Origin: Luteimonas chenhongjianii
Lineage (GTDB): Bacteria > Pseudomonadota > Gammaproteobacteria > Xanthomonadales > Xanthomonadaceae
Assembly: GCF_002327105.1 (NCBI RefSeq)
Contig: NZ_CP023406.1
Span: 2,108,001-2,172,000, forward strand
Length of the DNA: 64,000 bases
Reading direction: 5' to 3'
This document shows positions 19,493 to 31,200 of the stretch, piece after piece. Under the pieces are notes generated by a model, which was not told the DNA's origin, ran no database searches, and saw only the letters and a program-made list of their open reading frames with translations. A program made the translations under genes and the position numbers. Position 1 is the stretch's first letter. The number at the start of each line of letters is the position of its first letter.

Positions 19493-20128
19493 TCAGGCCG
19501 GCTCGCGCCCCTGGCGCGCCGCGAACAGCACCAGTTCGTTGGCGCGGCGGCAGCCCAGCACTTCCATCATGCGCGCGCGGTGGGTCTCTACAGTCTTGAC
19601 GCTGATGCCCAGTTCGACGCCGATCTCCTTGCTGCTGAGTCCGCGGCCGATCATGTCCAGGATCTGTCGCTGCCGATTGGACAGCGCATCGATACCGGCC
19701 GACCTGGGGCGGTTGAACAGCGGCGCCATCATCCGCGACGACAGCCGCGGGCTCAGGAACACCTCGCCCGCGACCGCGGTGCGCAGGGCCAGTTCCAGTT
19801 CCAGCGGCGCTGCGTCCTTGACCACGAAACCGGCGGCGCCACGTTCGAGCGCGCTGCGCACGTGCTGGGTGTCGTCGTGCATGGACATGATCAGCACGCG
19901 AACCGACGGCAGCTCGGCATGGATCGACCCCATCGCTTCGATCCCGCTGCGTCCGGGCAACGAGAGGTCCATCAGCACGATGTCAGGGCGGTGGATCAGC
20001 GCGAGCTCCAGCGCCTCCTCGGCGCGACTGGCCTCGGCGCAGACGTCGATGCCGCCGAATCCCTGCAGCAGGCGGGCCAGGCCCGCCCGCACAAGGGTAT
20101 GGTCGTCCACGATCATCACTCGCAACAA
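19493..20128 (-). CDS. NarL/FixJ-type response regulator with LuxR HTH
   Basis: This is a two-component response regulator of 211 residues. The receiver domain has Asp7-Asp8-type acidic pair (MIVDDHTLVRAGLARLLQ), phosphoacceptor Asp54 (VLMDLSLPGRSG) and Lys in GFVVKDAAPLEL. The LuxR-type helix-turn-helix follows (LSNRQRQILDMIGRGLSSKE, then IGVELGISVKTVETHRARMM). No kinase lies beside it. The NarX-like kinase at 48183-49337 has the right type to be its partner, but that is inference. It sits 178 bases before rpoN and 58 bases after the PilZ-like gene. Confidence 0.92.
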   Translation of the reverse strand: MLRVMIVDDHTLVRAGLARLLQGFGGIDVCAEASRAEEALELALIHRPDIVLMDLSLPGRSGIEAMGSIHAELPSVRVLIMSMHDDTQHVRSALERGAAGFVVKDAAPLELELALRTAVAGEVFLSPRLSSRMMAPLFNRPRSAGIDALSNRQRQILDMIGRGLSSKEIGVELGISVKTVETHRARMMEVLGCRRANELVLFAARQGREPA

Positions 20129-21535: not shown

Positions 21536-22867
21536 TCAGTTATCGCGGTTGGACGCCAGCAGGCTGTTGAGCGAACTGCTGCTGCTCTGCATCTGCACGA
21601 CCATCATCTCCATCGCGGTGAACTGCGAGGTATAGAGGCTGGACAGCTTCGTCATGCGGAGGTCCAGCGCGTCGAGCTGTTTCTCCAGGTCGGAGACCTG
21701 CTTGTTCAGACCTTCGGTGCGCTTGACCAGGCTGCCGCTGATCGAGTCGAGATTGTCCTTCAGCAGCGTGGTCAGCTTCTCTGCGTAGCCGCCTTGGGTA
21801 CCGAAGGCTGACGCCGCCGCGCCCGGATCGGCGGCGATTGCCACCGTGAAGTCGCTGGCGTTGAAGCTCAGCAGGCCGTCCTTGCCGGCCGTCACGCCCA
21901 GTGCCTTGAGACTTTCGGACTGCTCCCCGACCTGGCTGCGAAGCTGCTGCTGCAGCGTGCGCACCAGTGAGTCGCCATTCAACGCAGCGGCGGCCTTGGT
22001 CGTGGCGTTGTAGCTGCTGTTGGACTTCAGCGTGGTGACGACGTTGTTGTAGGCGGTGACGAAGGAGGCGACGTTGGTGCTGAGGGCCTCGTTGTCCTGG
22101 GCGATGCGCAGCGTCTGCGCGCCTTGCGTGACACGCGTGAGATCGAGCGTGGTGCCCGGCACGAGCCCGGAGACGCTGTTGCTGGCCGAGCGGCGCTCCA
22201 AGCCGTCCACCCAGACAACGGCATCGGTCGCGGCGACGGTTTCGCTCATCCCGCCACCGGAGCCGGTGGTCAATGCCTGCAGGCCGTTGTCATCCCCCTC
22301 GGCGGTGATTGTCAGCGCGTTGGCGGTGCCCGTGGAGGCTGCCGTGAAGACCAGATGCTGGCCCTGGCTGGAGGTCACGACCGTCGCGCCCACCCCCTTG
22401 CCCCCGGCCGCGCGATTCACCGCGTTGGCGATGTCGGTCAGCGTCGCATCTTCACCGATCTCGACTGACAGGCTTTCATCCTCCCCCCAGGCGAAGGTCA
22501 ATGTGCCGCTGCCGGGCTTCGCGTCCGGCGCGTGGCCGGCGGATGCCAGTTTCTGCGCACCTGCCAGCGCATCGACGCGCACGCTGTAGGTGCCGGGCAC
22601 CGCGCCACTTGCCGCAGTCGCGGCGAAGCCCGCATCAGCGGCGGTGGTCGCCTTGAACGACGGCTTGTCGGCACTCGTCGAAAGCCGGCTCAATGCAGTC
22701 TGCAGGTTGGCCATGGCGCTCTTGACCTGGCCGACCGCCGACAGCTTGGCATTGATCGCGGTCCCTGCACTCGTGATGCGCTTCTCGGTCGGTGCACGGG
22801 ACGAAGACACCAGACTCGACACGAGACTGGGAATGTCGATGCCGGAGCCGGTCGCGGAAATGGCCAT
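21536..22867 (-). CDS. fliD: FliD, filament cap protein
   Basis: FliD caps the growing filament and folds incoming flagellin subunits. It is 443 residues. The N-terminal coiled part is conserved (SGIDIPSLVSSLVSSSRAPT), the central beta-rich D2/D3 region is variable, and the C-terminal helical region is conserved (YAEKLTTLLKDNLDSISGSL and LRMTKLSSLYTSQFTAMEMM). Tandem sigma-28 and sigma-54 promoters lie upstream, which is consistent with a middle-to-late gene. fliS, the FliT-like gene and the PilZ-like gene follow. Confidence 0.96.
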   Translation of the reverse strand: MAISATGSGIDIPSLVSSLVSSSRAPTEKRITSAGTAINAKLSAVGQVKSAMANLQTALSRLSTSADKPSFKATTAADAGFAATAASGAVPGTYSVRVDALAGAQKLASAGHAPDAKPGSGTLTFAWGEDESLSVEIGEDATLTDIANAVNRAAGGKGVGATVVTSSQGQHLVFTAASTGTANALTITAEGDDNGLQALTTGSGGGMSETVAATDAVVWVDGLERRSASNSVSGLVPGTTLDLTRVTQGAQTLRIAQDNEALSTNVASFVTAYNNVVTTLKSNSSYNATTKAAAALNGDSLVRTLQQQLRSQVGEQSESLKALGVTAGKDGLLSFNASDFTVAIAADPGAAASAFGTQGGYAEKLTTLLKDNLDSISGSLVKRTEGLNKQVSDLEKQLDALDLRMTKLSSLYTSQFTAMEMMVVQMQSSSSSLNSLLASNRDN

Positions 22868-22971: not shown

Positions 22972-22987
22972 TGCAATAAACGTGCCT
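22972..22987 (-). promoter_or_regulatory. sigma-54 promoter for fliD
   Basis: Minus-strand AGGCAC-GTTTA-TTGCA matches the sigma-54 consensus with one change at the first base. The predicted start is near 22961. It lies immediately upstream of the sigma-28 site, giving fliD two flagellar promoters. Confidence 0.6.
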
Positions 22988-22997
22988 CTGGACGGGG

Positions 22998-23015
22998 GAG
23001 CGGGCAGGCCCGCTC
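22998..23015. repeat. 8-base inverted repeat at the glycosyltransferase stop codon
   Basis: GAGCGGGC-AG-GCCCGCTC is a perfect inverted repeat that overlaps the stop codon of the large glycosyltransferase gene (23014-23016). It could fold at the end of that transcript. The loop is only two bases and no run of U follows, so an intrinsic terminator is doubtful. Confidence 0.35.
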
Positions 23016-26000
23016 AGTCGGGCAGCCACTGCGACAGCCAGAACGTTGCATGTGATTCGTCGAGCATCCAGTCGCGACGCACTGCGTCTCGCAGTGCGTC
23101 TCCGGCTCGGGCCGCAGCGTCCAGGTCGTGCGTGTGCATGCGGACGGCCTCGACCCAGTCCCTGAAACGCGGTTTGACGCGCGTGACCGGCAACTCGCCC
23201 CGATACGGCGTGACATCGCTGCAGACGATCGGATAGCCACACGCGCCGTACTCGAGCAGGCGCAGATTGCTCTTGCAGCGGTTGAACAGGTTGTCCTCGA
23301 GGGGGGCCAGGGCGAGGTCGAGATTCAAGCCGGCCAGTCGGGCTGGGTAGTCCTCGATCGCGACGCCGGGATAGAACTCGTGCACGTAGGGGCGCAGCTT
23401 GTCCGGGCACATCCCCAAAAACACCCATTCGACCTCGTCGGCCAGTTCGCGCACCACGTCTGCAATCAGTTCCAGATCGCCGCGATGTCCGGCGCCGCCG
23501 CCCCAGCCCACGCGAGGGCGGCGGCCCTGGCGTCGCTGCGCCTTCACCGCGCCCCACCACGGCAGGGGCAGGCGGTTCTCAATGATACGGATGTCCGGGT
23601 GCAGACCGTCCAGTGCTTCGGCGAGAGGGGCGGTCGATACGACAAACCGGTCCACCAGCTTCAGCGCATCGCGCATCGTCTTGAGCACGTCGCTCGGCAG
23701 CTGCCCCTTGTGCGCACTCTTCATCGGCACGTTGGGGAGGTAGTCGTCGAGCTCGGCGACCTTGAAGCTGCGACTGAACCGGAGCATGCGCTTCTGCGGC
23801 TCCAGCTGGCTCTTGAGCATCTGCCGCTGCAACACCACCACGTCTGGCGCGAGGCGTTCCATCTCCACCGGCGTGCAGTAGCGGTCGCCGACCCGCACAT
23901 CAGCGATGCCGAACGCGTTCATTGCGGTAGCCGGCTGGAGAATCCGGTAGTGGCCGCAGCCGAAGCGGTCGGCCGGAAGCGCGAGCGCCACCGGCAGCGG
24001 GCGCCATGGCAGCGGGTTCCAGTTGAACGTGGTGTCGGTCTCGACTTGGAACGCCGGGCCGTTGAGGCTCAGGTTGCGGTTGTAGGCCGGATCATTGGCG
24101 AGCACCGGCAGCCATTTCACGTACATCGCGTCCTGCGCCTCGATGCGCAACCGTGCTTTCGTCTCAATATTTGTCCTGTCTTCCCGAACCTGGCTGGCGC
24201 CACCTTCGTGGAGGAGCAGCGCGTGGGGCGTCCACACGATCAGATAGCCCGCCTGACCGGCCTTCAGGCACAGGTCGGCGTCGTTATAGGCGTTGCGCAG
24301 CGGCCCGCCGTCAAGACCGCCAATCTCGTCGAACACTGACCTGCGGATCATCAGGCACGAACCCGAGACGGCACTGTAATTCTGGTCCACCTGCAGGCGG
24401 TACATGTAGCCTGGCGCGTCGATTTTCCCGCCGGCGAAGGCGGGCGCCGCTGGGCCATGCAGCCCCAGCACCGAGCCGGCGTGCTGCACCGTGCCATCAG
24501 GATTGAGCAATTTTGCGCCGACAATCCCGACCTCCGGGCGTTGCGCATGATTGAGCATCGCGTCCAGCCAGTCATCACGCAGGATCGCGGTGTCGTTGTC
24601 GAGCAGCAGCAGATACTCGCCTCGCGCACTCTGCGCGGCGAGATTGACCATCGCTGCATAATCGAAGGGCTGCGCGTAGCGCATTACCCGCAACTGCGGG
24701 GTGTCCATCGCCGTGATGCCGTCCAGCCAGCTGCAGGCATCGCTGTCGGTACTACCGTTGTCGACGATCAGCACCTCGTAGTTCGCGTAGCGCGTTTTCT
24801 CCAGCAGCGACTCGATACATCGGTTGAGCAGGCCGAACTGGTTCCGGCTGGGAATAATGATGGAAACCCCCGGCGTCGGCTGGTGTCCATAGTCGATCCT
24901 ATAGCAGCCAGGGAGGTGCGCCTCGATTGAGGCGCGATCGTAGCCGCGATTGCGCAGGTGCCGATGCAAGAGCTCGAGTTCCGAGTCGCGCGTGCGCACC
25001 TCCTGCAGCGGCAGGATCAGCAAAGGTTCGTGCACATGTCCGAGTCCTTCGATGCCGCCGGCATCGATCAGCCGGAGCAACAGATCGAACTCCGGTGCGT
25101 CTGCGAACGCGGGATCGAAGCCGCCCGTGTCGAGAAACGCGTCGCGGCGGAACAGCCAGTGACGCGACAGGCCCGACGGCATCGACAGCAGCAGATCGAG
25201 ATTGAAGTCGGGTCGCAGCAGGGCGGACAGTTCGCCAGTGCCGCCGCGCATCATCTCGTCTGCACAGAGCGCGCGTGTGTGTGGCGTTGCAATCAGCTCG
25301 AGCGCGGCCGCCAGCATGCCCGGGGCGATGAATTCAGAGCCGGCGTCGACCACGATGACCCAGTCGCAGTCACCGTTCTGCACGATTCGGTTGACGTCCG
25401 GGTAGCTGCCCTCCGCATGGAAGTGGATCTGCAGTGCCGTCGCACTCCCGACTGCCGTATGCATCGGAGGCGGCTTGCCCAGCCAGTCGAGTCGCAGATA
25501 CGGATAGAGGCCATGCGCCCGCTGCAGGCTTGCGAGGGTGGCGGCGGCCGCATCCGGCGAGTGTGCTTGGCCCACGACGATCACACCTAACATCGGGCAC
25601 GTCGCGGTCTGCAGCGCCTGCGCCACGATCGCGCTCTGGGCGGCGGTCGGCATGCGTCGCTCCAGCCACAGCTGCATGGAAGGCGCGACCTTCGGAGTAT
25701 TTTCGCCGGAGGCCTTTTTGCGCATGACCTCCTGCGTCGTTGACGTGAAGGCCTGCAGCCGGGTCCAGAAGCGGTCCTCAGCCTGTAGATGCTGGCAGCG
25801 CACTGCCGGAGTCTCCGCGTGCGCCTTGGCGAGCGACCTCGGCGAATCGTCCCAGACGATACCGCCGCCCACGTCTGCCCGCGTCTGCGGCGTGCACGCA
25901 TAGCGGTCGTAGCCCGGCGCCGTCAGGGCGACAACCGGACACCCGCACATCGCCGCCAAGCGGCAGGTCGTGGATGATTCGAAAGTGTAAAGCACGCGCG

Positions 26001-26715
26001 CCCGACGAAAGAGCGGGGCGAGCGCGTCGAGCGGGAGGGGAACATCCGGCGACAGCACCTGCACATCGGCGGGGAGCGTTTGGAAATCGATTGCCGATTT
26101 TGGCACGCGGTTGAGATACAGCAGTGTGAGCGTCCGCTCTTCCGCGGGTTCCGGCGAGAACGTGTCCGGATCCACCATTGGCAGGGTCAGAACCTCGCCG
26201 GGCCGGGCCGGATCGACGAACTCCGCACGGTGATAGACGAATATGTCGCCGGGCGCCGCATCCATCGTGTTGCCGCCGATGACGCCTTCCCTGTTGAGCA
26301 TGTAGCGAACGCATACGTCCGCCCCCAAGGGATTGCCGCGTATGGTTTCCGGGTAGACCGCGATGGGAGGGCGGCCGTCTGCGATGTGCTGATCTCGGAT
26401 GTCGTCGGTCAGGCGCGGGGTCTTGAGCCGCGGGTGGACGGTCGTGCACCCAACCACGTACGCGTCCGCGCCTTCGAGATTTAGTGCGTGGCAGAGGTAG
26501 TGCAAGCACTGGATGCCCGATGAGGTCTCTCTGTAATCCGGGGCGACCAAGTAGTAGGGAAATTCCACGCGGCGATGGAGGCGCCCGGTTTGCGGGGACG
26601 CGGCCGGGATCGGCACGATGGGCTCATGCAGGGGGCCTGCTTCGGCGTGGGACTTGCGCTCGCGCTTCTCTGTCGGAGCGCGATCGCCCTGCGTTGGCTC
26701 GATCACGATGTTCAT
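23014..26715 (-). CDS. Giant multi-domain glycosyltransferase, putative flagellin glycosyltransferase
   Basis: This predicted cytoplasmic protein of 1233 residues contains several glycosyltransferase modules. Residues about 60-365 look like a group-1 type transferase (FPYYLVAPDYRETSSGIQCL). A partial GT2-like part lies at about 400-590 (DWVIVVDAGSEFIAPGML). A clear GT2 domain lies at about 615-860 (GVSIIIPSRNQFGLLNRCIE, VLIVDNGSTD, and DxD motif LLLDNDTAI near 706). A C-terminal GT4-like domain follows (WGGAGHRGDLELIADVVREL, FNRCKSNLRLLEYGACGYPI). There is no signal peptide or membrane segment. The ATG at 26715 overlaps the methyltransferase stop by 4 bases. Sitting between fliD and fliC in a sigma-54-driven operon, it most likely attaches or extends the flagellin glycan; the substrate is inferred. 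Confidence 0.85.
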   Translation of the reverse strand: MNIVIEPTQGDRAPTEKRERKSHAEAGPLHEPIVPIPAASPQTGRLHRRVEFPYYLVAPDYRETSSGIQCLHYLCHALNLEGADAYVVGCTTVHPRLKTPRLTDDIRDQHIADGRPPIAVYPETIRGNPLGADVCVRYMLNREGVIGGNTMDAAPGDIFVYHRAEFVDPARPGEVLTLPMVDPDTFSPEPAEERTLTLLYLNRVPKSAIDFQTLPADVQVLSPDVPLPLDALAPLFRRARVLYTFESSTTCRLAAMCGCPVVALTAPGYDRYACTPQTRADVGGGIVWDDSPRSLAKAHAETPAVRCQHLQAEDRFWTRLQAFTSTTQEVMRKKASGENTPKVAPSMQLWLERRMPTAAQSAIVAQALQTATCPMLGVIVVGQAHSPDAAAATLASLQRAHGLYPYLRLDWLGKPPPMHTAVGSATALQIHFHAEGSYPDVNRIVQNGDCDWVIVVDAGSEFIAPGMLAAALELIATPHTRALCADEMMRGGTGELSALLRPDFNLDLLLSMPSGLSRHWLFRRDAFLDTGGFDPAFADAPEFDLLLRLIDAGGIEGLGHVHEPLLILPLQEVRTRDSELELLHRHLRNRGYDRASIEAHLPGCYRIDYGHQPTPGVSIIIPSRNQFGLLNRCIESLLEKTRYANYEVLIVDNGSTDSDACSWLDGITAMDTPQLRVMRYAQPFDYAAMVNLAAQSARGEYLLLLDNDTAILRDDWLDAMLNHAQRPEVGIVGAKLLNPDGTVQHAGSVLGLHGPAAPAFAGGKIDAPGYMYRLQVDQNYSAVSGSCLMIRRSVFDEIGGLDGGPLRNAYNDADLCLKAGQAGYLIVWTPHALLLHEGGASQVREDRTNIETKARLRIEAQDAMYVKWLPVLANDPAYNRNLSLNGPAFQVETDTTFNWNPLPWRPLPVALALPADRFGCGHYRILQPATAMNAFGIADVRVGDRYCTPVEMERLAPDVVVLQRQMLKSQLEPQKRMLRFSRSFKVAELDDYLPNVPMKSAHKGQLPSDVLKTMRDALKLVDRFVVSTAPLAEALDGLHPDIRIIENRLPLPWWGAVKAQRRQGRRPRVGWGGGAGHRGDLELIADVVRELADEVEWVFLGMCPDKLRPYVHEFYPGVAIEDYPARLAGLNLDLALAPLEDNLFNRCKSNLRLLEYGACGYPIVCSDVTPYRGELPVTRVKPRFRDWVEAVRMHTHDLDAAARAGDALRDAVRRDWMLDESHATFWLSQWLPD

Positions 26716-27494
26716 GCAAGTAGAAAGATCGGTCGATTGAGAAACTCGCCCAGGTCGTCCTTGCGATGGCGGTTGCCGTCGCACAGGTCGCGATAGACGA
26801 TCTCTCCTGAGGTATCGCGCTCGGCGACACCGACCTGGCGGACCCGCCATGCGCCATCAATGCCCGACTCCACGAACGCAACCATCTCGTCGATGGTGCC
26901 GTGCTCGAACATGCCCGCGTCTCGGTCGCCCTTCCAGTTGTACCCCAGTTGGAACACAAGGGTGTCGCAGTGCTCGCGCATCCGTCGCAGACTGCGAATG
27001 ATCTCGCCACGGGCGTCGTTCACGGACAGCGCCTTGTCGCCGTAGTCGTCGCCAACGTGGTGCAACACGTTCAGCAACAGGGCTACGTCGTAGTGGCCTC
27101 GCTCGCACTCGAAGTCGAAGTAGCGCGCATGGACGTCCATGCGTGCATCGAGTCCGAGCACCCCGCGTGCGGCGTTAAGAAACGCAGCATGGTCGGGACT
27201 GCCCTCGTAGGCGGTCGCATGACTGGCCCCGAGTCGCAGCATCTCCATCAGGAAGAAGCCGCCGTTGCTGCCGATGTCCAGGACGCTTTGGCCGTCCATG
27301 TCAATCCGGTCCAGCACATAGCGCAGTCGCGCCGCTTCGTATCGACGCAGCACGGGCAGAGTGCTGTCGGCCAGATGGGGCCACAGCAGGGCCGGGATTT
27401 CCTGGTAGCAGGCGTGCTTGCTCCCCAGGCGGGTACGTTCGAATGCCTCGCGCAGCGAGGACACGGCGTCGGACATGGTGGAATCCGTGGTCAT
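26712..27494 (-). CDS. SAM-dependent methyltransferase of the flagellar sugar operon
   Basis: This class I methyltransferase has 260 residues from ATG 27494 (a second ATG at 27476 is possible). The SAM-binding motif I is VLDIGSNGGFF at about 71-81. The acidic motif II follows (ATAYEGSPDHAAF), and motif IV is YDVALLLNVLHHVGDDYG. It overlaps its neighbours by 4 bases on both sides, so it is coupled to the ATP-grasp and glycosyltransferase genes. By analogy with VioM of the Pseudomonas syringae flagellin viosamine island it could O-methylate the sugar; sequence alone does not fix the acceptor. Confidence 0.85.
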   Translation of the reverse strand: MTTDSTMSDAVSSLREAFERTRLGSKHACYQEIPALLWPHLADSTLPVLRRYEAARLRYVLDRIDMDGQSVLDIGSNGGFFLMEMLRLGASHATAYEGSPDHAAFLNAARGVLGLDARMDVHARYFDFECERGHYDVALLLNVLHHVGDDYGDKALSVNDARGEIIRSLRRMREHCDTLVFQLGYNWKGDRDAGMFEHGTIDEMVAFVESGIDGAWRVRQVGVAERDTSGEIVYRDLCDGNRHRKDDLGEFLNRPIFLLA

Positions 27495-28615
27495 GGTTTG
27501 ATGGGACGAGAGGTGTGAACCAGACGCGACTTCAACGCGCCGACGATCTCGCTGAAAAAAATGCGCAAGCTGTCGCGTTTGAAATGCACGTCGCAGGCAA
27601 GCAGCGCGAGGCAGTCGCCAAGCCCTAGCTTGCGTGCGGCCGGATAGATGCGTGGCCGACGCTTGTGTCCCCAGTCGGCCAACCAGCCACCCAGCCATAA
27701 ATAGCGCCCGCCGGCGATGTCGCCGGACAGTGGGCGACCGTATCCGGTGAACGCCTCGGGCAGAAAACCGGCGCGGTCGGCGAGGCTCCATGGCCCCCAG
27801 AAGCGCGGATTGACTTCGATGAGGTAGTGCAGGCCCTCCAGCTCCATCGTCTCGATCATCGCGTAGCCGTGATAGCCCAGACCCTGGAACAGCGCGGTCA
27901 GTCGCTCGCGGGTCGACACGTCGGGACATCCGCACAGTTCAGCGGCGATGATCGATTTGCCGTTCTCTTGCTGCAGCAGGTTGCGCTGGTAGACGAACGT
28001 GGCGGTGCCGTCGCGGTCGAAATGGGCGAGATAGTAGTAGCTGGCGCCGTCGAGATAAGGCTGGAAAAAGTACTGCGTGCGATCGGCATGCCTGAGAAAC
28101 GCGTCGAGTGCGGCGGCATCGTGGATCAGTTCCGGGTAGAGCTTGCGTCCGTCTGCGGCGAACTCACATCGCGGCTTCGCCACCAGTGGCAGTGCCGCGG
28201 GAACAGCTGACTCCACCAGCGGCGGGACGAGCAATCCAAAACTCGCCGCCCGCTCCAGCAGGCTCGCCTTGTCGGAGACCGCAGCGTAGATAGTCTCACT
28301 GACGAGAGTCACGGCCAGCCCGGCCTGTTCGAAGCGTCGCCTGTGGCGCAGCACCAGCCTGTTGATCGATTCGGCGGTGGGCATGAACGCCAATGCCTGG
28401 CCTGGATGCCGCGCTGTCAGCGTGCGCACGCAGTCGATCATGTCGTCGAGGTCCAACGTGTCCACACGCCGGGCGGCTTCGATCCACCTGTGGTAGCGGG
28501 TTCGCCGCAACGGATCGGCGCCGGGTCGCGCGACCAGGGAGCAGGGCACGTCTCGTCTGGCGAACGAGCGACAGATCGCCAGCGCCGCGCGCTCGTTGGC
28601 GCCGGAAAAGATCAC
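27491..28615 (-). CDS. ATP-grasp ligase of the flagellar sugar operon
   Basis: This 374-residue ATP-grasp enzyme starts at GTG 28615 (IFSGANERAALAICRSFARR). The N-terminal nucleotide-fold part is followed by the lysine-bearing strand LPLVAKPRCEFAADGRKLYP, the segment QPYLDGASYYYLAHFDRDG and the metal-binding end GLHYLIEVNPRFWGPWSLAD, where Glu and Asn are conserved. Family members form amide or peptide bonds through acyl phosphates. In this operon it could acylate the 4-amino sugar made by the aminotransferase; that is inference. The gene lies 45 bases after the aminotransferase and overlaps the methyltransferase by 4 bases. Confidence 0.82.
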   Translation of the reverse strand: MIFSGANERAALAICRSFARRDVPCSLVARPGADPLRRTRYHRWIEAARRVDTLDLDDMIDCVRTLTARHPGQALAFMPTAESINRLVLRHRRRFEQAGLAVTLVSETIYAAVSDKASLLERAASFGLLVPPLVESAVPAALPLVAKPRCEFAADGRKLYPELIHDAAALDAFLRHADRTQYFFQPYLDGASYYYLAHFDRDGTATFVYQRNLLQQENGKSIIAAELCGCPDVSTRERLTALFQGLGYHGYAMIETMELEGLHYLIEVNPRFWGPWSLADRAGFLPEAFTGYGRPLSGDIAGGRYLWLGGWLADWGHKRRPRIYPAARKLGLGDCLALLACDVHFKRDSLRIFFSEIVGALKSRLVHTSRPIKP

Positions 28616-28660
28616 GTAGCGGATAGTAGGGTGCGCGTCCAGGACCAGTCTCTGCCGACG

Positions 28661-29935
28661 TCACGCCGGCCCGGCGGCGCGAGCCACGATGGAGATGATC
28701 CCGTCCTGTGCCTCGGGCGGCAGGCCCGGGTATAGCGGCAGGCAGATCACCTGGTCGGCGATCGCATTTGCGTGCGGCAACCGTGCGGGGTCCGATGAGG
28801 GCAGCCCCCGATACATCGGAAAACTGCTGATCAAGGGATAGAAGTAGCGACGCGCATGGATGCCGACATCCTTCAAGGCCTGGTACAGCATGTCGCGTGA
28901 CAGCGGGTAGCGCGGACGCACCAAGATCGGGAAGTAGCCATGGTTGTGACGGAATGCATCGCTGCGCACAGGTGTGATCCCGGCCACGCCGTTCAGGCCC
29001 GCCTCGTAGCGCTCCACGACTCGTTTGCGCTGCGCCAGCGCCGCGTCGATGTGCTCGAGCTGGAGCAGGCCGAAAGCGGCATTGATCTCGCTCATCTTGC
29101 CGTTGATGCCCGGCGCGACCACGGTGGTCTCGTCAGCGAAGCCGAAGTTTTTCAGGTGATCGATGCGGCGCTTGGTGCGTGCATCCGGACAGACGATGGC
29201 ACCTCCCTCGAATGTGTTGAACACCTTCGTGGCGTGCAGGCTGAGCACGGACAGGTCGCCGTGGCGTAGGATGCTGCCGCCGATGTCCTGCACGCCGAAG
29301 GCATGGGCTGCGTCGTAGACAACCTTCAGCCCGTAGTTGTCGGCGATCATCTGGATGGCGTCGACATCGCAAGGACGTCCATAGCAGTGCACGGGCAGGA
29401 TTGCCGTGGTCTGTGGCGTGATCGCGGCTTCGATTTGCGTCGGGTCGAGGTTCAGCGTGCGCGGGTTGATGTCCACGAACACCGGCTTGATGCCATTCCA
29501 CAGCAGCGCATGTGAGGTCGCCACAAAGCTGTAAGGGGTGGTGATGACCTCGCCAGTAATGCGCAGCGCCTGCAGCGCGGTCAGCAGGGCTATGGTTCCG
29601 TTGGCGAACAGCGAGATGTGTTCGACGCCCAGGTATTCGGCCAGTCGAACCTCCAGTTCCCGATGGCACGGCCCGTTGTTGGTCAGGATCTGCCTGTCCC
29701 AGATGCCCTGCAGATAGGGGATGAACTCCTCCAGGGGTGGCAGGTGGGGGCGGGTGACATAGATTGGCTCCGGCTCACGCTCAGACGCGGGCAACGTCGC
29801 GGCTTTCGTGTGCGCCGTCCGCTGCGCTGCCGGCCCGAAGCCGGGCAGAGCGTTCAGCAGCACGCTGTCGACGGCGCTGCCATGAGTGGCAGAGGCGCTG
29901 TGCAACCGTGCAGATGAGGCTTCGTCGACAGACAT
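28661..29935 (-). CDS. VioA-like nucleotide-sugar aminotransferase (DegT/DnrJ/EryC1)
   Basis: This is a PLP-dependent sugar aminotransferase of 424 residues. The start ATG 29935 follows a GGAG 8 bases upstream. About 65 variable residues precede the conserved domain, an extension most family members lack. The core shows ILTNNGPCHRELEVRLAEYL, ISLFANGTIALLTALQAL, the PLP-phosphate region YDAAHAFGV, and the Schiff-base lysine in SLHATKVFNTFEGGAIV. This pattern is closest, from memory, to VioA/FdtB-type enzymes that make dTDP-4-amino-4,6-dideoxyglucose or a 3-amino isomer. It is the first gene of the sugar operon and has a sigma-54 promoter at 29990-30005. Confidence 0.88.
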   Translation of the reverse strand: MSVDEASSARLHSASATHGSAVDSVLLNALPGFGPAAQRTAHTKAATLPASEREPEPIYVTRPHLPPLEEFIPYLQGIWDRQILTNNGPCHRELEVRLAEYLGVEHISLFANGTIALLTALQALRITGEVITTPYSFVATSHALLWNGIKPVFVDINPRTLNLDPTQIEAAITPQTTAILPVHCYGRPCDVDAIQMIADNYGLKVVYDAAHAFGVQDIGGSILRHGDLSVLSLHATKVFNTFEGGAIVCPDARTKRRIDHLKNFGFADETTVVAPGINGKMSEINAAFGLLQLEHIDAALAQRKRVVERYEAGLNGVAGITPVRSDAFRHNHGYFPILVRPRYPLSRDMLYQALKDVGIHARRYFYPLISSFPMYRGLPSSDPARLPHANAIADQVICLPLYPGLPPEAQDGIISIVARAAGPA

Positions 29936-29989
29936 CGCAGACTCCAAGGAGAACGAGCGGTCGTTACGGCCGCCGGATGCCGCTGACGT

Positions 29990-30005
29990 TGCAAGAGGCG
30001 TGCCG
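29990..30005 (-). promoter_or_regulatory. sigma-54 promoter for the sugar-modification operon
   Basis: Minus-strand CGGCAC-GCCTC-TTGCA is a sigma-54 match with one change. The predicted start is near 29979, 44 bases before the aminotransferase ATG. It lies in the 304-base fliC-aminotransferase gap, which otherwise holds the fliC terminator and no visible gene. It puts the four sugar genes under RpoN like the basal-body genes. Confidence 0.72.
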
Positions 30006-30182: not shown

Positions 30183-30215
30183 AAAAAAACCCGCCTCCGA
30201 TGCCGGAGGCGGGTT
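30183..30215 (-). terminator. Intrinsic terminator of fliC
   Basis: A perfect 12-base stem (AACCCGCCTCCG with its complement, 30188-30199 and 30204-30215) closes a 4-base loop. On the minus strand it is followed by seven U residues. It starts 25 bases after the fliC stop codon and should end the fliC message before the sugar operon. Confidence 0.95.
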
Positions 30216-30239: not shown

Positions 30240-31070
30240 TTACTGCAGCAGGCTGAGCACGCTCTGCGGAGCAGACTTGGCCTGTGCCAGCATCGCGGTA
30301 CCGGCCTGCTGGAGGATCTGCGTCCGGGTCAGTTCGACCGTCTCCTTGGCGTAGTCGGTGTCCTGGATGCGGCTGCGCGAGGCCGAGAGGTTCTCGGAGC
30401 TGGTCTGCAGATTCGAGACCGCCGAGCTGAAGCGGTTCTGGATGGCACCCAGCTCGGCGCGGGCTTCGTTAACCGACTTCAAGGCGTCGTCGAGGGTCGT
30501 CAGCTGGGTAGCACCCGAGCCTGCGGCCATGCCCGAGATCGAGAAGGTGTCACTCGTCACGCCCGACAGCGCAGCCGTCATGTCCGTCAGCGCGATGTCG
30601 ATCTTGTCGTAGTCGGTGGCATTTGCGCCGACCTGAATGGAGATGGTGCCGCTAGCGCTGAGCAGTGCGGTGTCATTGAACTTGGTGTTATTGACCACAC
30701 GCAGGATTTCCGACTGCAGCTGCGTAACTTCCTTCTGCAGCGCGTCCTTGTCGTCAATGTTGTTAGTGCCGTTGGCGGCCTGCACGGTCAGTTCGCGGAT
30801 ACGCTGCAGGTTGTTGCCGATTTCGCCGAGCGCGCCCTCGGCGGTCTGCGCCAGTGAGATGCCGTCGTTGGCGTTGCGGGCAGCCTGGTCCATGCCGCGG
30901 ACCTGCGAGGTCATGCGCTGCGAGATGGCGAGGCCGGCGGCGTCGTCCTTGGCGCTATTGATGCGCAGGCCAGACGACAGACGCTGGATGGTGGTCGACA
31001 GGCTGGCGCTGTTGGTGGACAGGTTGCGCTGGGCGTTGAGGGCGATGGTGTTGGTGTTGATGACGGACAT
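30240..31070 (-). CDS. fliC: FliC, flagellin (short form)
   Basis: This is the filament subunit, 276 residues from ATG 31070, an upstream in-frame ATG being less likely. The N-terminal D0/D1 region ([40 protein letters not shown]) and C-terminal D1/D0 region ([20 protein letters not shown], then [20 protein letters not shown] and SLLQ) are complete. Only about 50 residues of central region remain, so outer D2/D3 domains are essentially absent; many xanthomonad flagellins are near 400 residues. The flg22-type segment [15 protein letters not shown] is almost canonical. It has two sigma-28 promoters, a strong terminator, and FliS and FliD nearby. Confidence 0.97.
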
Positions 31071-31174
31071 GATGCAGGTCTCCTGGTATGGGGAATCCGG
31101 CACGGGAACAGGGCCTGGCCGGTGGCTCCGCAGGGAGTTGCCGTTGATTCGGCCCTGTCCTCTGCTGTAACCAA

Positions 31175-31200
31175 TAACGGCGTCTCGTCGTCAAGCTTTA
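31175..31200 (-). promoter_or_regulatory. sigma-28 promoter P1 of fliC
   Basis: On the minus strand TAAAGCTT, then GCCGTTATT with exactly 15 bases between TAAA and GCCG. This is very close to the enterobacterial FliA consensus. The predicted start is near 31167, leaving a leader of about 97 bases before the fliC ATG. Confidence 0.85.

What the first reader, a model, noticed from the sequence alone, without database searches (positions are those of the whole stretch)
23014..30005. RpoN-driven sugar operon between fliD and fliC: viosamine-like glycan pathway with an ATP-grasp ligase
Seen: a VioA-like aminotransferase, an ATP-grasp enzyme, a methyltransferase and a 1233-residue multi-domain glycosyltransferase lie in one operon with 4-base overlaps between the last three genes. 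A sigma-54 match stands 44 bases before the first gene. Known: the flagellin glycosylation island of Pseudomonas syringae makes a modified viosamine with VioA (aminotransferase), VioM (methyltransferase), VioT (glycosyltransferase) and an acyl-transfer step. Inference: here an ATP-grasp amide ligase may replace the acyltransferase, giving a 4-amino sugar that carries an amino-acid or hydroxy-acid amide. I do not know of a described flagellin pathway with this set.
Basis: partly seen in the sequence, partly recalled or inferred. Interest (0 to 1): 0.8.

Follow-up and report, generated by a model that had tools for sequence, protein, structure and literature searches.

The report
Flagellin sugar cassette with amide ligase
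Between two flagellum genes sits a four-gene operon that probably makes an unusual amide-decorated, methylated amino sugar and attaches it to the flagellum protein; its three-gene core recurs in flagellar and other sugar gene clusters of distant bacteria, and its exact product is still unknown.

Summary
On the minus strand, between fliC and fliD, lie a DegT-family sugar aminotransferase closest to DesI (AT), an ATP-grasp protein, a class-I methyltransferase (MT) and a 1233-residue multi-domain glycosyltransferase (GT). Both 4-base overlaps are real. The sigma-54 site (11 of 12 positions) has a counterpart in a relative with the same operon. The operon is an insert: of 20 other same-genus fliD loci examined, 19 have fliC followed by fliD without it.

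New result: AT, ATP-grasp and MT form a conserved cassette. Of 80 loci picked only by the ATP-grasp protein, 67 have all three on one strand, in eleven named phyla; 26 of 80 carry flagellar genes. Flanking proteins elsewhere are often glycosyltransferases and flippases. No acyltransferase family is among the 25 listed for 92 flanking proteins, and the genome has no NeuD/VioB-type protein above cut-off.

Best reading: the ATP-grasp enzyme stands where Pseudomonas syringae has an acyl branch (VioS, VioR, ACP, VioB), and ligates an acid, perhaps an amino acid, to a dTDP-4-amino-4,6-dideoxyhexose. This is inferred; the acid is unknown. ATP-grasp genes in flagellin modification are already described (C. 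difficile type B, Shewanella SfmE): a new variant of a known kind.

The parts
31174..31200 (-). sigma-28-like promoter of fliC, TAAAGCTT-N11-GCCGTTAT (consensus recalled)
   Evidence: sequence read
30240..31070 (-). fliC, flagellin, 276 aa; presumed acceptor
   Evidence: Pfam Flagellin_N and Flagellin_C
30183..30213 (-). intrinsic terminator-like hairpin plus T-run behind fliC
   Evidence: sequence read by eye
29990..30005 (-). sigma-54 (RpoN) site CGGCACGCCTCTTGCA, 11 of 12 positions
   Evidence: 10 of 12 at the corresponding place in L015
28661..29935 (-). sugar aminotransferase, DegT family, closest to DesI (4-aminotransferase)
   Evidence: Pfam DegT E 4.9e-97; NCBIfam best DesI 299 bits, below cut-off 650; top PDB sequence match 2po3, recalled to be DesI
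27491..28615 (-). ATP-grasp protein, putative amide ligase; GTG start, exact start uncertain
26712..27494 (-). class-I SAM methyltransferase; its homologues share an EFLNRPxFIL-like end
   Evidence: Methyltransf_23 28.0 bits against cut-off 27; alignment of 39; fold
23014..26715 (-). 1233-aa multi-domain glycosyltransferase; GT2 domain 618-799, weak GT1-like matches near the C-terminus, exchangeable N-terminal module about 1-346
   Evidence: (C-terminal matches E 0.005 and 0.016, below cut-off)
22972..22987 (-). sigma-54 site before fliD, AGGCACGTTTATTGCA, 11 of 12
   Evidence: best site before fliD scores 10 or 11 in 11 of 20 same-genus loci
21536..22867 (-). fliD; downstream border of the insert
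   Evidence: Pfam FliD_N and FliD_C over cut-off

Best explanation
The four genes are a patchily distributed flagellin glycosylation cassette under its own RpoN promoter. RmlA and RmlB, encoded elsewhere, supply dTDP-4-keto-6-deoxyglucose. AT converts it to a dTDP-4-amino-4,6-dideoxyhexose (viosamine type). The ATP-grasp enzyme activates a carboxylic acid as an acyl phosphate and joins it to the 4-amino group as an amide; the acid is probably a common metabolite such as an amino or hydroxy acid, since I saw no gene for making a special acid recur beside it. MT methylates this product, on the acyl part or on the ring. The large GT builds the glycan on flagellin in the cytoplasm and adds this sugar, as VioT does in P. 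syringae. Shown by computation: gene content, promoter-like site, insertion, folds, conserved linkage of AT, ATP-grasp and MT. Inferred: each catalytic step, the amide, the acid and the acceptor.
Against: No Pfam or PDB sequence match assigns the ATP-grasp protein to amide ligases. The highest-Z folds are biotin carboxylases, GAR synthetases and PurK, tied with PylC within 1 Z, so the fold does not fix the reaction; NCBIfam's weak hits are carbamoyl-phosphate-synthase-like. AT is far below the DesI cut-off (299 of 650 bits). The ATP-grasp gene has no same-strand AT nearby in 10 of 80 loci and no MT beside it in 5 of 80, so its substrate need not be this AT's product. 54 of 80 loci show no flagellar gene in the DNA fetched, so the cassette is not flagellin-specific as such; 33 of 80 loci are shorter than 20.8 kb, so some absences are contig ends. 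45 of the 70 families are not shown, so rarer acyltransferases could be missed. Eight sites of 11 or 12 positions in 64 kb show that a good sigma-54 match is not rare. I saw no mass spectrum.
Confidence: 0.58

Rival explanations
1. As above, but the ATP-grasp enzyme does not act on the 4-amino sugar. It makes a separate small amide or dipeptide, or activates another group, as proposed for the D-Ala-ligase-like gene of C. difficile type B, and the cap is attached later or at another position.
For: MT is tied to ATP-grasp (75 of 80) a little more often than AT is (70 of 80). In C. difficile a FemAB-type acyltransferase, not the ATP-grasp gene, was proposed to acylate Fuc3N (PMC5207245 Discussion).
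Against: No FemAB or other acyltransferase gene is in this operon, and none shows among the 25 families listed of 70 for 92 flanking proteins.
Confidence: 0.2
2. A plain viosamine-type flagellin glycan: the amino group is acylated by an ordinary CoA- or ACP-dependent acyltransferase encoded elsewhere, and the ATP-grasp protein plays a minor part.
For: P. syringae needs vioB and vioR, with vioS and acp proposed, for this step (PMC3927599); hexapeptide-repeat matches exist in the genome.
Against: The 8 NeuD-model hits in the genome are all below cut-off; 7 touch only the later part of the model (from position 82 on) and one only its first 87 positions. Other acyltransferase families were not searched in the genome. 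The ATP-grasp gene is kept with MT and AT across phyla.
Confidence: 0.1
3. The operon acts on lipopolysaccharide or another polysaccharide; its place between fliC and fliD is incidental.
For: Among 92 flanking proteins of relatives 26 are Glycos_transf_2 and 15 flippase-family members. The flagellar label changes at least 10 times on starred branches of the ATP-grasp tree.
Against: Its promoter-like site is of the class seen before the neighbouring fliD. In the 11-row clade that holds it (support 99) 9 have flagellar genes in reach. No flippase or polymerase is in the operon.
Confidence: 0.1

Closest known systems
Viosamine island of Pseudomonas syringae pv. tabaci 6605 (vioA, vioM, vioT, vioS, vioB, vioR, acp) and the P. 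aeruginosa PAK glycosylation island; PMC3927599, abstract and sections 2.1 and 2.3 read
   Same: Sugar 4-aminotransferase, methyltransferase and a very large glycosyltransferase (VioT 1173 aa) for flagellin; dTDP-sugar route
   Different: VioS, VioR, ACP and VioB, which serve the 3-hydroxybutyryl group, are absent from the operon; one ATP-grasp gene stands in their place. VioA, VioM and VioT sequences were not compared here.
C. difficile type B flagellin locus (CDR20291_0241-0247) and its peptidylamido-glycan; PMC5207245 abstract and Discussion, PMC5207246 one section read
   Same: Amino sugar route from RmlA/RmlB, FdtB-like aminotransferase, ATP-grasp gene, methylation, beside fliC; the product does carry an amide-linked amino-acid-type cap
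   Different: 3-amino sugar (Fuc3N), a FemAB acyltransferase and an alanine-dehydrogenase-like gene, three separate GTs, ATP-grasp of Pfam PF13535; here the AT is best matched by the 4-aminotransferase DesI
Shewanella oneidensis sfmABCDE; PMC3765264, passages, abstract and Discussion read
   Same: Methyltransferase followed by an ATP-grasp gene (SfmD, SfmE), both needed for full flagellin modification
   Different: NeuB-like, TPP-dependent and reductase genes on a nonulosonic acid route; no aminotransferase in that operon; SfmE is described as ATP-grasp_4
PylC (4ffl) and 2pn1, solved ATP-grasp structures
   Different: 15% and 18% identity; whether substrates are related is unknown

Membership tests
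P. syringae-type viosamine island | dTDP-4-keto-6-deoxyglucose 4-aminotransferase (VioA type) | tested here: inconclusive
   DegT family; DesI best model but 299 bits against cut-off 650; not compared with VioA itself
P. syringae-type viosamine island | RmlA and RmlB in the genome | tested here: met
   one hit each over cut-off at 3.265 Mb
P. syringae-type viosamine island | VioB acyltransferase with VioS, VioR and ACP in the island | tested here: not met
   operon holds four genes only; NeuD model: 8 hits in the genome, none over cut-off
P. syringae-type viosamine island | large multi-domain transferase like VioT | tested here: inconclusive
   1233 aa, GT2 plus weak GT1-like matches; not aligned with VioT
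P. syringae-type viosamine island | sugar found on flagellin | not testable with these tools
   needs mass spectrometry
C. difficile type B peptidylamido-glycan locus | FemAB-type acyltransferase in the operon | tested here: not met
   none among the four proteins; rest of the genome not searched for it
C. difficile type B peptidylamido-glycan locus | ATP-grasp of Pfam PF13535 | tested here: inconclusive
   1 of 31 family members touches PF13535 at E 0.004; 26 of 31 touch PF02655 at E up to 0.1
C. difficile type B peptidylamido-glycan locus | 3-aminotransferase (FdtB) | tested here: inconclusive
   best NCBIfam model is the 4-aminotransferase DesI; FdtB not compared directly
ATP-grasp superfamily | complete ATP-grasp fold | tested here: met
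ATP-grasp superfamily | curated Pfam cut-off of an ATP-grasp model | tested here: not met
   PF02655 14.7 bits against 23.2
ATP-grasp superfamily | carboxylate-amine ligase activity | not testable with these tools
   needs an enzyme assay
DesI equivalog (TIGR04427) | score over 650 bits | tested here: not met
   299 bits
class-I SAM methyltransferases | Pfam Methyltransf_23 over cut-off and matching fold | tested here: met

The most novel reading that the evidence does not exclude
AT, ATP-grasp and MT are a portable three-enzyme module, undescribed as such in the papers I could search, that makes a new class of sugar: a dTDP-4-amino-4,6-dideoxyhexose acylated directly by an ATP-grasp ligase with a free amino or hydroxy acid and then methylated. 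It needs no CoA, ACP or dedicated acyl donor, and it is plugged into flagellin glycosylation in some bacteria and into capsule or O-antigen type clusters in others, across eleven phyla.
Probability: 0.42. Interest if true: 0.74.

Novelty: new variant of a known kind. Interest (0 to 1): 0.57.

Why it matters
Flagellin and capsule sugars affect motility, phage binding and immune recognition (general knowledge), and their odd acyl groups are often found by mass spectrometry before any enzyme is known. A three-gene cassette that recurs across phyla gives a genomic marker for one such decoration and a small, testable set of enzymes. If the ATP-grasp enzyme joins a free acid directly to a nucleotide-linked amino sugar, it is a simple route to amide-sugars. 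The pair of related Luteimonas operons also offers a clean comparison: same cassette, different N-terminal glycosyltransferase module.

Tried and rejected
Compositional island: rejected. GC of the four genes (63.1-65.2%) is close to that of the five flagellar neighbours measured (63.4-67.7%), though below the window mean of 68.7%; the evidence for insertion is synteny only.

Sigma-54 site by chance: unlikely (0.0015 per gap, and a counterpart in a relative), but 8 sites of that quality exist in the window. My first reading by eye of its spacing was wrong; one search corrected it.

Biotin carboxylase, GAR synthetase or PurK identity from the fold: not accepted. These top the list but tie with PylC and 2pn1 within about 1 Z, and Foldseek's 50 rows shown are biotin or pyruvate carboxylase types with TM-scores of 0.50-0.60 on the query.

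Reciprocal test seeded by MT: small yield. Class 2 of 274 genomes (own included), one small family 1 of 5, phylum 1 of 398 (own) at E 1e-30. The one foreign hit (L124) does carry ATP-grasp, MT and AT, but its contig has the same length as that of L089, so it is probably the same genome and not independent. The cassette is rare.

Paper searches: searches listed no paper that I recognised as describing AT, ATP-grasp and MT together; only open-licence PubMed Central is covered. The C. botulinum legionaminic acid with an N-methylglutamyl amide is recalled, not read; PMC5109656 (a passage) mentions a methylated legionaminic derivative there.

Full report
WHAT IS THERE. The window lies in a single-contig 3.35-Mb genome. 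The ATP-grasp protein is 93% identical to one from Luteimonas terrae, so I take the organism to be a Luteimonas or close kin (inference). On the minus strand the order is flgK, flgL, fliC, AT, ATP-grasp, MT, GT, fliD, fliS (flagellar families by Pfam, FlgL by its flagellin domain and place). fliC has a sigma-28-like promoter (31200-31174) and ends in a terminator-like hairpin (30213-30183), both read by eye. The operon has its own sigma-54 site at 30005-29990. MT overlaps ATP-grasp, and GT overlaps MT, each by the four bases ATGA.

PROMOTER. The site matches 11 of 12 specified positions. On both strands of the window 8 sites score 11 or 12; one is this and one lies before fliD at 22987. In a first-order Markov model of the 304-base gap, one strand, a score of 11 or more came up in 0.145% of 20000 trials. 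Luteimonas sp. BLCC-B24, which has the same operon, has CGGCACATCCCTTGCA (10 of 12) at the corresponding place. In the 260 bases before fliD the best site scores 10 or 11 in 11 of 20 same-genus loci and 5 to 9 in the other 9. So RpoN control is a good prediction, untested.

INSERTION. Of 52 same-genus genomes (own included) 31 have a FliD match. I fetched 20 of the 30 others. One of 20 (G022) has AT, ATP-grasp, MT and GT between fliC and fliD; 19 of 20 have the order flgK-flgL-fliC-fliD-fliS and no hit to any of the four. In two of those (L105, L106) the fliC-fliD gap is only about 200 bases. G022 and L015 (Luteimonas sp. BLCC-B24) have contigs of equal length and equal identities, so they are taken as the same genome and counted once. 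In the family, 13 of 345 genomes have any ATP-grasp match at E 0.001 and only the window's own and G022 are above 31% identity; homologues of 66% and 63% also exist in Pseudoxanthomonas sp. JBR18 and [Pseudomonas] boreopolis. The distribution is patchy.

THE CASSETTE. A scan of GTDB genomes with the ATP-grasp profile gave 151 relatives, of which the best 80 were kept. Around these 80, chosen without regard to neighbours, 55 have AT-ATPG-MT and 12 ATPG-MT-AT on one strand; 8 have ATPG-MT without a same-strand AT within 3.5 kb, 3 have AT without MT within 1 kb, 2 have neither. The 67 full sets fall in 11 named phyla (Pseudomonadota 26, Bacteroidota 16, Bacillota 13, Calditrichota 2, Fidelibacterota 2, six others 1 each) and 2 in none; phyla follow record titles, many of them metagenome bins. 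33 of 80 loci are shorter than 20.8 kb, that is, cut by contig ends, and are in the denominator. MT proteins keep a signature of their own (KHxxYQ, NVLHHxGDD, EFLNRPxFIL-like end) at 25-48% identity to the window's outside Luteimonas, in the 39 aligned. All 10 AT proteins I scanned, of 70 found, have DesI as the best NCBIfam model, at 171-513 bits against a cut-off of 650.

CONTEXT. 26 of 80 loci have at least one flagellar gene (tblastn E 1e-5) within the fetched DNA, 24 of them with the full set; in 8 of the 26 the ATP-grasp gene lies between flagellar genes of its own strand, in Luteimonas, Pseudomonas and Bacillaceae genomes. In a tree of 81 ATP-grasp proteins the flagellar label needs 14 changes, at least 10 on starred branches; shuffled mean 22.8 (quick method). 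The window's protein falls in an 11-row clade (support 99) with Pseudomonas and enterobacterial-type proteins, 9 of 11 with flagellar genes. Of 92 flanking proteins scanned (92 of 239 listed, mostly immediate neighbours from L025-L094; flanks of the closest loci mostly left out), 26 hit Glycos_transf_2, 15 a flippase family, 5 an NTP transferase, 3 an epimerase/dehydratase family; no acyltransferase family is among the 25 families listed of 70.

THE BIG GT. Its C-terminal part, residues 347-1233, is 73% identical to that of L015, but residues 1-346 find no match there (blastp E 1e-6). The window's N-terminus instead matches Pseudomonas L016-L018 (48-49% over nearly the whole length), while L015's N-terminal region matches Erwinia L020, Mixta L022 and Pseudomonas L023-L024. 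Two Glycos_transf_2 stretches pass in L015's protein and in L023's, one in the window's. So two related operons share the cassette and the GT body but differ in the first GT module. A protein search returned 2794 homologues among 7999 scored candidates, and many of the 120 listed cover only 72-77% of the query. I infer that the N-terminal module sets one sugar of the chain and the shared body adds others.

MECHANISM. RmlA and RmlB make dTDP-4-keto-6-deoxyglucose; AT aminates C4; the ATP-grasp enzyme forms an amide at that nitrogen; MT methylates; GT transfers to flagellin. Only the order of genes, the folds and the linkage are shown. In P. syringae the same sugar carries a 3-hydroxybutyryl group; vioB and vioR mutants lack the sugar, vioS and acp are proposed partners, and vioM mutants carry demethylated mVio (PMC3927599, sections read). 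Here one gene stands where those four stand.

PRIOR ART. C. difficile type B flagellin has Fuc3N capped with a taurine, alanine and glycine peptidylamido group (PMC5207245, abstract and Discussion). Its locus holds an FdtB homologue, an ATP-grasp gene and a FemAB-type acyltransferase, the last proposed to acylate the amino group. Shewanella SfmE is an ATP-grasp protein; its deletion shifts flagellin mass somewhat less than sfmA-D deletions (PMC3765264, passages). The enterobacterial and Geobacillus island surveys (PMC4875605, PMC5109656; passages only) list aminotransferases and methyltransferases, the first also acyl-supply genes; the word carbamoyl does not occur in either and the listing counts no ATP-grasp in them. 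So the kind is known; the gene set and the cross-phylum cassette appear undescribed within the papers searched.

VERDICT. Observation confirmed; interpretation partly supported and extended. New variant of a known kind. The open and interesting step is the acid and the enzyme that joins it.

Noticed in passing
window 25678-26715 (GT residues 1-346) and L015:11901-15542: The N-terminal module of the big GT differs between two related operons: 73% identical bodies, no match in the first 346 or so residues, each matching GTs of other bacterial families.
   Followed up: partly
window 28616-28663: AT and ATP-grasp genes are in the same reading frame, parted by one TGA and 45 bases without an in-frame ATG, GTG or TTG before GTG 28615, which lies right at the conserved first strand; no clear ribosome-binding site seen by eye.
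   Followed up: partly
window 29770-29935: AT has an N-terminal stretch of about 55 residues that aligns with the Luteimonas BLCC-B24 protein but not with the ATs of L004, L005, L009 or L124.
   Followed up: no
window 30240-31070; L104, L105, L106: Flagellins of the two operon-bearing genomes have more Ser plus Thr (59 and 62) than those of two operon-free relatives (48 and 51), by eye mostly in the variable region; four sequences only and confounded by kinship.
   Followed up: partly
window 42431-42416 and 38403-38388, minus strand: Two perfect 12-of-12 sigma-54 sites, perhaps of other flagellar operons; genes behind them not looked at.
   Followed up: no
window 19493-20128, minus strand: LuxR-type response regulator (Response_reg plus GerE) just beyond the flagellar genes.
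   Followed up: partly
L005 (G077) 175-2202: A 70%-identical AT stands beside only a partial, weak ATP-grasp match (27-29%, E 1.9e-12), so the AT may also travel with other ATP-grasp types.
   Followed up: no
P0056, P0133, P0138: Some homologues of the big GT list methyltransferase domains (PF13489, PF08241) in the same protein.
   Followed up: no
L019:7760-8698, L039:11880-12812, L066:2385-3332, L091:11142-12092: A family of unknown proteins of about 310 residues recurs in 4 of 80 loci downstream of MT; the L019 member has no Pfam match at E 0.001.
   Followed up: partly
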